Assembly (NCBI GenBank): GCA_902558375.1
Contig: CACEDQ010000004.1
Coordinates: 1 to 64,000, forward strand
Direction: 5' to 3'
DNA length: 64,000 bases
DNA from: an uncultured SAR86 cluster bacterium
GTDB lineage: Bacteria > Pseudomonadota > Gammaproteobacteria > Magnimaribacterales > D2472
A program made the translations under genes and the position numbers. Shown one piece after another: positions 15,701 to 19,224 of this stretch (the first letter of the stretch is position 1; the number at the start of each line of letters is the position of its first letter). Under the pieces are notes generated by a model. The model was not told the DNA's origin. It saw only the letters and a list, made by a program, of their open reading frames with translations, and searched no databases.

Positions 15701-15891
15701 ATTAATCTTGAAGTATCACTAGGGGATGCTCCATCCAAATAAACCGAAACACTTATAAAGGGTAGTTGGACGTTAGGAGAAGCAGCAATAGATATTTCTT
15801 GTCTTGCATATGATCCGGCAATAATGATCATAAATGCAATCATTAAAGTTGTTTTTGCTTTTGACAAAGCAAAATCTATAATTCTTGTCAT
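12781..15891 (-). CDS. RND-family efflux transporter permease (AcrB/MexB-like)
   Basis: 1036 aa. GMLIDGAIVITEYADKK TM4 motif, TLAGIVVNNNIVLIDTFN, and typical pore/porter domains. Confidence 0.94.
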   Translation of the reverse strand: MTRIIDFALSKAKTTLMIAFMIIIAGSYARQEISIAASPNVQLPFISVSVYLDGASPSDTSRLIAKPLENRLMTVSGVKSISSRSTLSFARIFLEFEVGYDMDEALVDIKQAVEETKYELPREAEDPQISEYSEASFPVMNISIIGNSSIRQKVFYAKELKDKVESLEEILQANLSGAPEEVLEGVINKSRMESYEVTLSDIYYSVSNNNLIIPGGTQDTGKGSFNIEVPSVIETAQDVYSIPIKVTKDAIVTLGDIADIKRTFKDFTSYARINGQDAVTLEVQLRDGANSIDASYAIKDILNNYEKTLPENLEILITQDDTLYSIDMVKELNGNIIAAVVLIMVLVIASMGFRVSMLVGLSIPFCFLFTYLIFFSLGMEINFLVMMGLLLGMGMLIDGAIVITEYADKKIGEGLSRSEGYKMASKRMFYPIVASTGTTMAAFIPVMLWPGFTGQFMRYLPITVFTVLAGSLIYSLIMIPVLGSYLGQQDSALNKDEGRDSIFKKLTELYGKRIAKFVKNPIETCIAVASVLLIIIMSYSYFGKGTIYFALVDPVEANVTIKARGNYSALETKEIVQQVEERFLEVPGLGSVYLRAGSEWWNREADKIGGGFVEVAPAAEREISGLKIMELLSESVNDMPGIFVEISPDLGGPSFDNPIELDLYGNNENDVNTAADIIEAHMRNNIKGLKNITSSKSYPSVEWSVEVDKQKAAQLGVSVADVGALVQMLTNGFKVGEYRPDDSRDEVEIRARFPQSDRTITGIQNLNVITLEGLVPVSSFISVVPKENRQSVNRRDGKFTQQIGAATIDESKVSEKVEEIDLWLKSADLSKGVTYKFTGMAEETEDVNNFMIAAGIMAVFIMLLMLLTQFNSFYQSFIILTSVTISFVGVLLGLLITGKPFSTTMTGLSIVTLAGIVVNNNIVLIDTFNKLREESPHIENSIHIINACKQRLRPILLTSLTTIFGLLPLAMGVSLDIIARDIALGSPIVDWWSNLAVSIVFGLAFSTFITLILTPAVLSLPYALRNDFKKFFKTAN

Positions 15892-16758
15892 ATTTGGTTT
15901 GTAAGCACTTGTTGACCGTCTTCAACAAACCCTTGACCTTGAACAATAAGATCAAGCGAATCAGGTATATCAGTAATCCATAATCCTGATTCAGAGTCCT
16001 CTAATATTGTGACATTATGAAAAACAACAACTCCATCAATCACCGATCGAATTCCAATTTTGCCATTATCATTAAGTATTAGAATTGATGGTGAGATTTT
16101 GTGTGCTTTTACGAATTTTGTTTTTATTATCATTTCTGCAGTAATACCATCCCTTACAATTCCATTCTTATTCTGAATTTGAGATTCAACTTTAAAAGTT
16201 CTTGTTGAGGTTGAAGCACTTTTTGAAACGAATGTTAAATTACCTTCAATAACTTCACCAGTAATCAAGCTAATAAGAACTTCTTGACCTGTTTCAACTT
16301 TATTAATATTAAATTCTGGGACTTCAGCAGAAAATATAATAGGGTTAAGTTGGATGATAGTTGCACACACCTGTCCTCTCTCAAGAAAATTTCCAGGTTT
16401 TACAATCTGTTCAATGAATCCAGAAAAGGGTGCTTTAACCTCTGTTCTATTTAACTCAACAACACCTAAGCTACAAAGAATAGAATCTTTTTCTACAAAC
16501 TGTCCCTGAGTTGAACCTATTTTTACTACCTCACCTGAGGTCTTTGCTCTTACATTAACCCTAGCTTCAGATTGTGAAGTAGCCTTTAATTTAATTGTGG
16601 GTTGATAATCAACCGCATTACTTGTAGTTACACCCACAGCAAAGAGCTCATTTTTTATATTTTCTGGTTCTTTTTTATCTGTTACAAAAAAAACCAGATA
16701 CCATCCAAAGAATTATTGGTATGAGGATATATAAAGATATTCTTATATTCTTGGTCAT
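15888..16758 (-). pseudogene. RND periplasmic adaptor (membrane fusion protein) with a +1 frameshift at an A8/T8 tract (16686-16693) near the N-terminus
   Basis: The main ORF 15888..16637 is an HlyD/AcrA-like adaptor (VRAKTSGEVVKIGSTQGQFVEKDS). Upstream, an ATG at 16758 encodes a membrane anchor MTKNIRISLYILIPIILWMVSGFF; deleting one T fuses it to VTDKKEPENIKNELFAVGV. The span is 871 nt, i.e. 3n+1. Confidence 0.78.
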
Positions 16759-16819: not shown

Positions 16820-17467
16820 CTATACGTTGTGCTTTTTTCTGAGGCTTTCAAAAAGCTTCTTGTTCATTGGTTTATTTTCAGATCTATTTGAGTCTGGAGT
16901 TGGAATTTTAAATTCTTTACCATTTAATAAATCATCCTTAAGTTTATTAAAAATCTTTTTGAAAGAAGAAAACAATTCTCTACTATCTTTTTCATCTATG
17001 AAATTCCAACCTATTTTTTTACCTGTGAAATAAACGATTGGATGGCTCCATGAAAATTCTGTTCTTGGTGCATATGATTTTCTTGCTTCAATATATGCCT
17101 CTTCTACTGAAGGAAAACCGTTATGACTATTTATTTCCGAACAAGCCTTAAGAAAATCTGTTAGTGTTGGTAAATATGACTGAGCGCCTATTACATTTTC
17201 AGTTGCTTCTGTAATTATTTCTGGAGAAAAAGATTTCAAACTTATTGCCCAAAGTTTTTTACCCTCATTTAGCCTATCATCAGTACCAAAGACTTTATAA
17301 AATTGATAGTGATATGCCAATTCGAGCTTGAGGAATAAATTGTCAATGCACTCAATATATTTTTCTTTATTCAAAGTTAATTTCTGACGCCCAAGAGGAG
17401 TCACCTTTTCTTGCTGAAAAGTCTTTTCCATATTTTCCTGGTTCAGTATGTTTTTGATTTTCTTCAT
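16820..17467 (-). CDS. Replication protein P (phage lambda P)-like putative helicase loader
   Basis: Region KKLWAISLKSFSPEIITEATENVIGAQSYLPTLTDFLKACSE resembles the lambda P family core. It overlaps the DnaT-like gene upstream. An internal ATG at about 17431 is an alternative start. Confidence 0.6.
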   Translation of the reverse strand: MKKIKNILNQENMEKTFQQEKVTPLGRQKLTLNKEKYIECIDNLFLKLELAYHYQFYKVFGTDDRLNEGKKLWAISLKSFSPEIITEATENVIGAQSYLPTLTDFLKACSEINSHNGFPSVEEAYIEARKSYAPRTEFSWSHPIVYFTGKKIGWNFIDEKDSRELFSSFKKIFNKLKDDLLNGKEFKIPTPDSNRSENKPMNKKLFESLRKKHNV

Positions 17468-18170
17468 CTTTTAAATTTTGGTTATCTGATATATGCCTTC
17501 TTTTTACGTGTTCAATAAATTTAGAGTTCCATGTTGTGAAAGCAGAACCATTCTCTTTCCAGTATAGTATAAATTCTTTTAAATATTTTGAAGCTGATTC
17601 TTTTGAGATATTAGATAATTCTAGGATATCATAAGCATCATTACTTGGAGACCATTCGAAATCTATAGTATGAGGAAGTCCTTTATTTGAACTTTGTTCC
17701 TTTGCCCACTCTCTTCTAATGTAATCTATAAAAGAAGTATTCCAGTTATTTCGTTCTTGTCCTCTTTCTAACCAATATAATACAAATTCTTTTACTTTGC
17801 TTGAAATGAAAGTTTTTGGGATTTCAACCATATTTAGAATTTCCAAAGCTTCATTGGATGGTGACCAATTTGAATCAATTTTTAATTTTTTTGTGTTGTT
17901 AGCTTGAGCAGGCTTTAAATCGTAATTTTTTTTGTTTGTTATTTCTTGTGAATTTGAAATAAGCTTGTAATTCAATAGTTTTTTTAGACTTGTTTCAATA
18001 AGTGCATGCTCAATGAAAGGCAATTCTTGCTGTACCAAAGTTTTAAAGAGCTCAGAATCACCGGAATAGGTGATTTTATTTTGCTGGTACAGTTCAAGTA
18101 TTATTGCAGCTTCGATGCCTAGAGTTTCAGCAACATCTCTTGAAAAGGAAATTCTATCAAAGCGTTTCAA
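17367..18170 (-). CDS. DnaT-like protein with two tandem DnaT-type ssDNA-binding domains
   Basis: Internal repeat: NWSPSNEALEILNMVEIPKTFISSKVKEFVLYWLERGQERNNWNTSFIDYIRREW and EWSPSNDAYDILELSNISKESASKYLKEFILYWKENGSAFTTWNSKFIEHVKRRH. Confidence 0.7.
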   Translation of the reverse strand: MKRFDRISFSRDVAETLGIEAAIILELYQQNKITYSGDSELFKTLVQQELPFIEHALIETSLKKLLNYKLISNSQEITNKKNYDLKPAQANNTKKLKIDSNWSPSNEALEILNMVEIPKTFISSKVKEFVLYWLERGQERNNWNTSFIDYIRREWAKEQSSNKGLPHTIDFEWSPSNDAYDILELSNISKESASKYLKEFILYWKENGSAFTTWNSKFIEHVKRRHISDNQNLKDEENQKHTEPGKYGKDFSARKGDSSWASEINFE

Positions 18171-18174
18171 TAGC

Positions 18175-19224
18175 CTATGAGCTCCTTCTTTTAGTCACCG
18201 CATCGCTCAAACTTTGCAGACATGAAACTGTATCATCCCAACCTATACATGCATCAGTAATGCTCTGACCATATACAAGAGAATCAGAAATTTTTTGATT
18301 ACCCTCTATAAGATGACTTTCTATCATTACACCTTTAATGTTTTTATTGCCATCTGAGATTTGACTAGAGATATTCTCAATTACAGGCAGTTGTTGTTTA
18401 AATTGTTTTTGACTATTACCATGACTAGCATCAATCATAATTGACTCATTAACTTCAGCCTCTCTGAGCGCAATTAAAGTTTCATTAATAGAATTACTGT
18501 CATAATTTGGCTCTTTGCCACCTCTAAGAATAATGTGAGCATCATTATTACCTGCTGTTTTTAACATAGCTATGTCAGATTCTTTGGTTGCCCCAAGGAA
18601 AACATGTGAGTGATTAGCTGCTTGAATTCCATCTATAGCTGCTTTAAGACCACCGTTTGTTGCATTTTTTATACCAATAGGGCAAGAGAGTCCTGATGCT
18701 AATTCCCTATGTATCTGACTTTCAGCCGTTCTAGCGCCAATAGCTCCCCAAGAAATAATATCAGTAATATATTGGGGAGAAATGGGGTCAAGAAACTCTG
18801 TACCTGCAGGTAGATTTAAGTTAGCAAGATCTATTAAGAGTTTCCTGGCTATTTCAACACCTTTACCAATTTTAAAGCTTTCATTTAGGTCAGGATCGTT
18901 TATAAGACCTTTCCATCCAACTGTTGTTCTAGGTTTTTCAAAATAAACCCTCATAACTATTAAAAGCTCCTCTTTGAATTTAATGTTTTGTTCTATTAAT
19001 TTTTTTCCATATTCAATCGCACTCTCAGGATCGTGAATAGAACATGGACCAACAACCACCAATAAGCGATCATCCTTGTCATGCAAAATTTGGCTGATTT
19101 CCTGTCTTGTCCCATATACAAGCTTAGAAATATCATCATTTATAGGGTGCTTATTTACCAATTCATATGGAGCAGGAACTTTTTGCCTATCAATAATCCT
19201 GGTATTGTCTGTTGAATAATTCAT
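18175..19224 (-). CDS. 3-deoxy-7-phosphoheptulonate synthase (class I DAHP synthase)
   Basis: VVGPCSIHDPESAIEYG, MRVYFEKPRTTVGWKGLINDP and MIDASHGNSQK motifs. Confidence 0.96.
   Translation of the reverse strand: MNYSTDNTRIIDRQKVPAPYELVNKHPINDDISKLVYGTRQEISQILHDKDDRLLVVVGPCSIHDPESAIEYGKKLIEQNIKFKEELLIVMRVYFEKPRTTVGWKGLINDPDLNESFKIGKGVEIARKLLIDLANLNLPAGTEFLDPISPQYITDIISWGAIGARTAESQIHRELASGLSCPIGIKNATNGGLKAAIDGIQAANHSHVFLGATKESDIAMLKTAGNNDAHIILRGGKEPNYDSNSINETLIALREAEVNESIMIDASHGNSQKQFKQQLPVIENISSQISDGNKNIKGVMIESHLIEGNQKISDSLVYGQSITDACIGWDDTVSCLQSLSDAVTKRRSS

What the first reader, a model, noticed from the sequence alone, without database searches (positions are those of the whole stretch)
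16820..18170. Chromosomal pair of a tandem-DnaT-domain protein and a lambda P-like protein: candidate domesticated phage-type helicase loader/primosome
Seen: one protein carries two copies of a W-SPSN-(x)n-EF(I/V)LYW-(x)n-W-N-S/T-FI-(D/E)-(Y/H)-(I/V)-(K/R)-R repeat, resembling the DnaT C-terminal ssDNA-binding domain. The next gene overlaps it by 65-101 nt and resembles phage lambda P. Established: DnaT is a primosomal protein, and lambda P loads DnaB. No integrase, capsid or other phage genes are nearby, and the flanks are core genes (RND pump, DAHP synthase). Inference: the pair may be the host's own replication-restart or helicase-loading system.
Basis: partly seen in the sequence, partly recalled or inferred. 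Interest (0 to 1): 0.65.

Follow-up and report, generated by a model that had tools for sequence, protein, structure and literature searches.

The report
Domesticated phage helicase loader with DnaT partner
A small-genome bacterium appears to load its chromosome's replication helicase with a pair of genes taken from phages long ago; the pair is a known but little-studied type, and relatives show it shrinking to a DnaT protein that keeps only the loader's end piece.

Summary
ORF 17367-18170(-) has two DnaT ssDNA-binding domains (Pfam E 9e-40). ORF 16820-17467(-), overlapping it by 101 nt, is a lambda P-type helicase loader (Pfam 2e-7, PHROG 1.5e-12; its AlphaFold model best matches lambda P bound to DnaB). 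The pair is chromosomal, under purifying selection, syntenic (DAHP synthase - DnaT - P - RND adaptor) and order-wide: DnaT in 71 of 76 genomes, P in 56 of 76. DciA is absent from all 76 (311 of 370 sampled gammaproteobacteria have it); no DnaC-like gene was found.

What looks new: two families lost the P gene independently (joint clade rejected, p-AU 0.003), and in both the DnaT protein now ends in a P-like C-terminal helix. Two other lineages lost P's middle but kept this tail, probably the DnaB-docking helix. Two genera lack a detectable PriA yet keep the pair, suggesting oriC loading rather than restart alone. No function was tested.

The parts
17367..18170 (-). Tandem-DnaT-domain protein (267 aa, TTG start), DopC-type partner
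   Evidence: PF17948 x2, E 9.1e-40; orthologues in 71 of 76 genomes of the order
17685..17879 (-). DnaT domain 1
   Evidence: 77.5 bits, E 5.7e-22
17487..17666 (-). DnaT domain 2
   Evidence: 65.7 bits, E 3.0e-18
17379..17402 (-). Conserved C-terminal DSSWASEI motif of the DnaT protein, function unknown
   Evidence: W260 invariant in A2 and A5; Cellvibrionales end L.DRSWA and Mu-like phage tandem-DnaT proteins end near D(S/R)SWA
16820..17467 (-). Lambda P-type helicase loader (215 aa), DopE type
   Evidence: PF06992 31.2 bits; PHROG 109 1.5e-12; AF2 model best matches lambda P in 9oa1, prob 1.00
17126..17368 (-). P N-terminal helical domain (residues 34-114)
   Evidence: pLDDT mostly 88-98; matches SPP1 G39P 1no1 by fold (prob 0.92) and by profile over residues 64-125 (E 0.0014)
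16925..17110 (-). P middle domain (residues 120-181, ..FSWSHPIVYFTGKKIGW..), expected to contact the DnaB C-terminal domain
   Evidence: Conserved in chromosomal P; lost in genus g6, MEX2-MAG4, f2 and f4
16823..16891 (-). P C-terminal helix/tail (residues 193-215, KPMNKKLFESLRKKHNV), proposed DnaB-docking helix
   Evidence: Helix 193-212 in the model; resembles the lambda P C-terminus RPLNRAQALAKIAEIKAKFGL; found on DnaT proteins of P-less families
17367..17467 (-). 101-nt overlap of the two genes
   Evidence: similar overlaps in relatives
18175..19224 (-). DAHP synthase, conserved upstream neighbour
15888..16637 (-). RND membrane-fusion (adaptor) protein, conserved downstream neighbour

Best explanation
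The pair is the organism's own replicative-helicase loading system, of the DopC/DopE type: a lambda P-like loader domesticated from phages in place of DciA, working with a tandem-DnaT partner. Proposed mechanism: the DnaT domains hold ssDNA exposed at oriC (and perhaps at stalled forks); P binds DnaB, with its middle domain in the cleft between DnaB C-terminal domains and its C-terminal helix on the linker-helix/docking-helix site, opens the ring, and is brought to the ssDNA by its translationally coupled DnaT partner. Shown here: family membership, synteny, order-wide retention, absence of DciA and of a detected DnaC, purifying selection, structural match to lambda P and DnaT. Inferred: DnaB binding, ring opening, ssDNA binding, DnaT-P contact, essentiality.
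For: Pfam/PHROG hits. P model best PDB matches are lambda P in the DnaB complex 9oa1 (prob 1.00); DnaT model best matches are E. coli and Salmonella DnaT ssDNA-binding domains 4ou6 and 6aeq (prob 0.84-0.96). DnaT in 71/76 and 39/40 high-quality genomes of the order, P in 56/76 with all P-less clades being families f2 and f4. DciA 0/76 versus 311/370 across the class. The one high-quality genome without DnaT (G033) shows no match to the neighbouring DAHP synthase, ScpA/B or RND adaptor either, so an assembly gap is likelier than a specific loss. Same pair in 77/80 Cellvibrionales-type loci, an order lacking dciA and dnaC/I (PMC5109545). Chromosomal P except the unplaced long branch CV_G127 forms one clade, 96/96. 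dN/dS 0.08-0.16 for P and 0.16-0.22 for DnaT in most pairs. PriA undetected in f3 genera g10 and g18, which keep the pair.
Against: No functional data. Families f2 and f4 live without the P body, so the full P is not indispensable. The DnaT-domain fold match is weak by E-value (0.38-0.68). DnaC was judged absent from a generic AAA+ family search, and the genomes are draft, so a divergent loader could be missed. One within-genus-level comparison gave DnaT dN/dS 0.48, with synonymous sites near saturation.
Confidence: 0.85

Rival explanations
1. Replication-restart module: as in E. coli, DnaT works with PriA to reload DnaB at stalled forks, and another, unrecognised loader serves oriC.
For: DnaT is the E. 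coli restart protein (established). PriA is present over its cut-off in 36 of 41 genomes, including the window's own. Tandem-DnaT proteins occur in Mu-like phages; Mu is known to use host restart proteins.
Against: PriA was not detected above its cut-off in the four high-quality genomes of genera g10 and g18 (G026 is one contig, 97% complete), which keep DnaT-P. No other loader was found; DciA is absent from all 76 genomes. The roles are not exclusive.
Confidence: 0.1
2. Anti-phage or phage-derived decoy: P sequesters DnaB or competes with incoming phage loaders, and the pair is a retained prophage remnant or defence gene.
For: Free lambda P is toxic by sequestering DnaB (PMC4926192 abstract).
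Against: Order-wide vertical pattern with fixed synteny, tight complementarity with DciA, and no other phage genes nearby. Defence genes are typically patchy.
Confidence: 0.03
3. The C-terminal tail shared by P and the f2/f4 DnaT proteins is a degradation signal or chance basic helix rather than a DnaB-docking helix.
For: The tail is short (about 13-20 residues) and rich in K, L and I, as many C-termini of AT-rich genomes are: 1 of 984 ORF C-termini of G033 scored above 9, the lowest f4 score.
Against: All 10 sampled P-less DnaT proteins score 9.0-19.5, against 3.1 or less for 80 Cellvibrionales DnaT proteins and below 0 for 11 P-bearing f1/f3 ones. The tail resembles the lambda P C-terminus, placed tentatively next to the DnaB linker helix in cryo-EM (PMC6391071). 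Acquired twice independently.
Confidence: 0.25

Closest known systems
DopC/DopE of Cellvibrionales (Brezellec et al. 2017, doi 10.1093/gbe/evx111; paper not held here)
   Same: Chromosomal lambda P-like loader paired with a partner gene in gammaproteobacteria that lack DciA and DnaC/I. The Cellvibrionales loci found here have the same overlapping DnaT-P architecture, and P forms one clade.
   Different: Different order; two instead of three DnaT domains in the window's family; conserved link to DAHP synthase not seen in the 80 named loci; repeated loss of the P body with retention of the tail. The 2017 abstract, as I recall it, derives DopC from lambda O; the Cellvibrionales DnaT partner shows no detectable similarity to an O profile (hhalign prob 1.3). 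I could not check which gene the authors call DopC.
Phage lambda P (PF06992)
   Same: Three-part layout, C-terminal helix, best structural match
   Different: Partner is a tandem-DnaT protein instead of O; 215 aa; chromosomal and conserved
E. coli DnaT (PF17948)
   Same: DnaT ssDNA-binding domain fold
   Different: Two or three domains per protein with a different N-terminus, paired with P instead of DnaC
Stenotrophomonas phage Suso 'DnaD-like primosome initiator' (L227:1992-2858)
   Same: N-terminal region plus DnaT domain align with the chromosomal partner (hhalign prob 99.2, E 1.5e-19); ends in a P-like tail (PLSPDENRKRFAEAFALLK, by eye)
   Different: One DnaT domain; no P gene next to it; phage-borne
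SPP1 G39P (1no1)
   Same: Fold of the P N-terminal domain (prob 0.92)
   Different: Firmicute phage loader; no P middle domain

Membership tests
DopC/DopE-type loader pair | Chromosomal lambda P homologue conserved across a clade | tested here: met
   56/76 genomes, fixed synteny
DopC/DopE-type loader pair | Host lacks DciA | tested here: met
   0/76; class control 311/370
DopC/DopE-type loader pair | Host lacks DnaC/DnaI | tested here: met
   PF01695 hits in 41 genomes look like DnaA, Lon/ClpX and other AAA+ frames by length and profile range; none is a DnaC-like gene
DopC/DopE-type loader pair | Same clade and partner as the Cellvibrionales pair | tested here: met
   P clade 96/96 (G127 unplaced); partner homologous and overlapping
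DopC/DopE-type loader pair | Partner derived from lambda O (as recalled from the 2017 abstract) | tested here: not met
   hhalign of partner profile A5 against an O profile: prob 1.3; against phage Suso protein: prob 99.2. The paper could not be read, so its DopC definition is unchecked; filing rests on the other features
DopC/DopE-type loader pair | Loads DnaB at oriC | not testable with these tools
   No assay; not shown in the literature available here either
Phage_lambda_P (PF06992) | Score above the curated cut-off | tested here: met
   31.2 bits against 26
Phage_lambda_P (PF06992) | Lambda P fold | tested here: met
   Foldseek 9oa1, E 2.4e-4, prob 1.00
DnaT (PF17948) | DnaT domain above cut-off | tested here: met
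   134.7 bits against 25
DnaT (PF17948) | ssDNA binding | not testable with these tools
   Only fold similarity to DnaT-ssDNA structure 4ou6
Prophage replication genes | Other phage genes or boundary nearby | tested here: not met
   Core-gene neighbours conserved across families

The most novel reading that the evidence does not exclude
In families f2 and f4 of this order a single protein, DnaT domains plus a transplanted lambda P C-terminal helix, is the whole helicase loader: an ssDNA-binding module tethered to a DnaB-docking peptide, without the P body, DciA or a AAA+ loader. It evolved at least twice within the order, and phage Suso may carry a comparable design.
Probability: 0.5. Interest if true: 0.75.

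Novelty: new variant of a known kind. Interest (0 to 1): 0.55.

Why it matters
It extends a poorly known third class of bacterial helicase loader from Cellvibrionales to a whole order of small-genome, apparently marine gammaproteobacteria. It also offers a natural deletion series that points to the smallest part of a loader that must be kept: a C-terminal helix fused to ssDNA-binding domains. This makes a long-open question, what a helicase loader minimally needs, directly testable with short peptides and purified DnaB.

Tried and rejected
Prophage remnant: rejected by conserved core synteny. Hidden DciA or DnaC: searched, none found. A single ancestral P loss in f2 and f4: rejected (p-AU 0.003; chosen after seeing the tree). 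G033 as a true DnaT loss: not supported, since neighbouring genes were not found either. PF06992 alone as a survey tool: insensitive in six-frame scans (it missed the window's own P), so the order was surveyed with lineage profiles. SwissProt-like naming by NCBIfam gave nothing. phmmer of P alone against PDB gave nothing. Brezellec 2017 could not be read. Tandem-DnaT relatives of the window protein in the phage record collection: none by tblastn.

Full report
What is there. The minus strand of the window carries, in one direction, DAHP synthase (18175-19224), a 267-aa protein with two DnaT domains (17367-18170, TTG start immediately after the DAHP synthase stop), a 215-aa lambda P-type protein (16820-17467) overlapping it by 101 nt, and an RND adaptor and pump. 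Pfam gives DnaT E 9.1e-40 and Phage_lambda_P 31.2 bits against a cut-off of 26; PHROG 109, 'P-like helicase loader', gives 1.5e-12.

Organism. The window is part of a 1.0-Mb, 72%-complete assembly. The order has four sampled families with genomes of 0.9-1.8 Mb.

Structure. The P model (mean pLDDT 83.6) has an N-terminal helical domain, a middle domain and a C-terminal helix. Its best PDB matches are lambda P in the E. coli DnaB-lambda P complex 9oa1 (E 2.4e-4 and 3.8e-4, prob 1.00); SPP1 G39P (1no1) matches the N-domain with prob 0.92. The DnaT2 model has two confident domains; its best matches are DnaT ssDNA-binding domains 4ou6 and 6aeq, probability 0.84-0.96 but E about 0.4-0.7.

Conservation. 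With lineage profiles, DnaT is found in 71 of 76 genomes at least 85% complete (the window's own, at 72%, counted among them) and in 39 of 40 of high quality; P in 56 of 76. The single high-quality exception, G033, shows no match to the neighbouring DAHP synthase, ScpA/ScpB or RND adaptor of related genomes either, so an assembly gap is the simplest reading (one million of 1,003,251 bases read). The order DAHP synthase - DnaT - P - RND adaptor is kept in families f1 and f3. dN/dS against f1 relatives is 0.08-0.16 for P and 0.16-0.22 for DnaT in most pairs, with one DnaT value of 0.48; synonymous sites are near saturation in all but the closest pair, where the values are 0.11 and 0.16.

Other loaders. 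DciA (PF05258) is found in none of the 76 genomes, whereas 311 of 370 genomes sampled across the class have it. PF01695, which covers DnaC, hits only frames whose length and profile range fit DnaA, Lon/ClpX and other AAA+ proteins. These assignments are by frame length and position, not by a further search.

Relation to known systems. A scan with the DnaT protein returned 80 named loci, most of them Cellvibrionales and relatives (Porticoccus, Cellvibrio, Simiduia, Teredinibacter, SAR92, Pseudohongiella and others). In 77 of 80 a P gene follows. Cellvibrionales were reported to lack both dciA and dnaC/I (PMC5109545), and a 2017 paper described domestication of lambda genes as a third helicase matchmaker (title from reference lists); a 2026 paper names a DopE family of loaders (PMC13326638). 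The names DopC and DopE, and their derivation from lambda O and P, I recall from the 2017 abstract; the paper is not held. In the P tree all SAR86-like and Cellvibrionales P proteins form one clade with support 96/96 apart from phage P; a single divergent row, G127, is unplaced on a long branch. So this is a member of a known kind of system, in an order for which I found no report in the library.

Origin of the partner. The DnaT partner profile aligns with the phage Suso 'DnaD-like primosome initiator' over its N-terminal and DnaT regions (prob 99.2, E 1.5e-19), and not with a profile of lambda O-type proteins (prob 1.3; that profile is small and diverse). Mu-like phage contigs carry stand-alone tandem-DnaT proteins with the same D(S/R)SWA motif. 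A prophage in G322 carries an overlapping DnaT-P pair in a genome that keeps DciA. Phage versions of the parts therefore exist; the ancestor of the whole pair was not identified.

A natural deletion series. In families f2 and f4 there is no P gene at the locus and none found genome-wide (including one-contig genomes G028 and G030). Yet the DnaT proteins of all ten sampled P-less genomes end in a P-like tail, such as KSKLEELKKKHLI (f2) or ANLREKYKI (f4). A position matrix from eleven f1/f3 P tails scores these ends 9.0-19.5. P-bearing f1/f3 DnaT proteins score below 0, 80 Cellvibrionales DnaT proteins at most 3.1, and the best unrelated C-terminus among the fetched loci 4.7. In the AT-rich genome G033, one of 984 ORF ends exceeds 9 (12.7), so the weaker f4 scores are suggestive one by one and persuasive as a set; in f4 the residues R.KY.I are invariant while whole proteins are 39-44% identical to the first row. 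A DAHP synthase + adaptor tree puts f4 with f1 and f2 with f3 and rejects f2+f4 as one clade (p-AU 0.0029; the adaptor was missing for several rows, and the group was chosen after an earlier tree). Two independent events are the better reading. In genus g6 (three genomes) and in MEX2-MAG4 outside the order (one genome), P has lost its middle domain but keeps the N-domain and tail.

Mechanism. Lambda P places a helical domain in the cleft between DnaB C-terminal domains and a further helix against the DnaB linker helix, tentatively the C-terminal one (PMC6391071). The linker-helix/docking-helix site is shared by DnaC, DciA and lambda P (PMC9912922). The lambda P C-terminus (RPLNRAQALAKIAEIKAKFGL) resembles the tails seen here. 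I therefore propose that the tail docks on DnaB, and that the DnaT domains bring the complex to ssDNA. Docking, ssDNA binding and loading are inferred.

oriC or restart. PriA is present over its cut-off in 36 of 41 genomes including the window's own, but not detected in the four high-quality genomes of genera g10 and g18, which keep the pair (G006 also lacked a hit). A purely PriA-dependent restart role cannot explain retention there. An oriC role is the simplest reading; both roles may coexist.

Verdict. Real, chromosomal, conserved, and most likely the host's helicase loader. The kind is known; the extension to this order and the transfer of the tail to DnaT are the new parts.

Noticed in passing
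window 16650-16740 (-): The RND adaptor ORF (249 aa, GTG) is shorter than in relatives (about 289 aa); the missing N-terminus is readable upstream in another frame across a run of T (by eye), suggesting a one-base frameshift or sequencing error.
   Followed up: partly
L141:5992-6504, L142:5881-6525, L143:5992-6501: Mu-like phage contigs carry stand-alone tandem-DnaT proteins ending near D(S/R)SWA, next to GemA/Mor-like genes, with no P gene seen.
   Followed up: partly
L227:1992-2858 (Stenotrophomonas phage Suso): Annotated 'DnaD-like primosome initiator' has a DnaT domain and a C-terminal end resembling the P tail (PLSPDENRKRFAEAFALLK), with no P gene beside it.
   Followed up: partly
L013, L086, L087 (genus g6); L131/L147 (MEX2-MAG4): P proteins of 147-169 aa lack the middle domain but keep the N-domain and tail.
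   Followed up: partly
G026, G041, G049, G050 (family f3, genera g10 and g18): No PriA above the cut-off although the genomes are 90-97% complete.
   Followed up: no
G033:C1: A one-contig, 93%-complete genome shows no match to the DAHP synthase - DnaT - RND adaptor region or to nearby ScpA/ScpB.
   Followed up: partly
L140:5458-7210 (genome G279, family f91): A lambda P homologue ending SLANSHLSKLKAQFTKA follows a gene with only a weak winged-helix hit; similar P hits occur in two other genomes of that genus.
   Followed up: no
L088, L089, L076-L080 (families f3, f2): DnaT proteins there have a third, more N-terminal DnaT-like segment, as in Cellvibrionales; f1 and f4 have two.
   Followed up: partly
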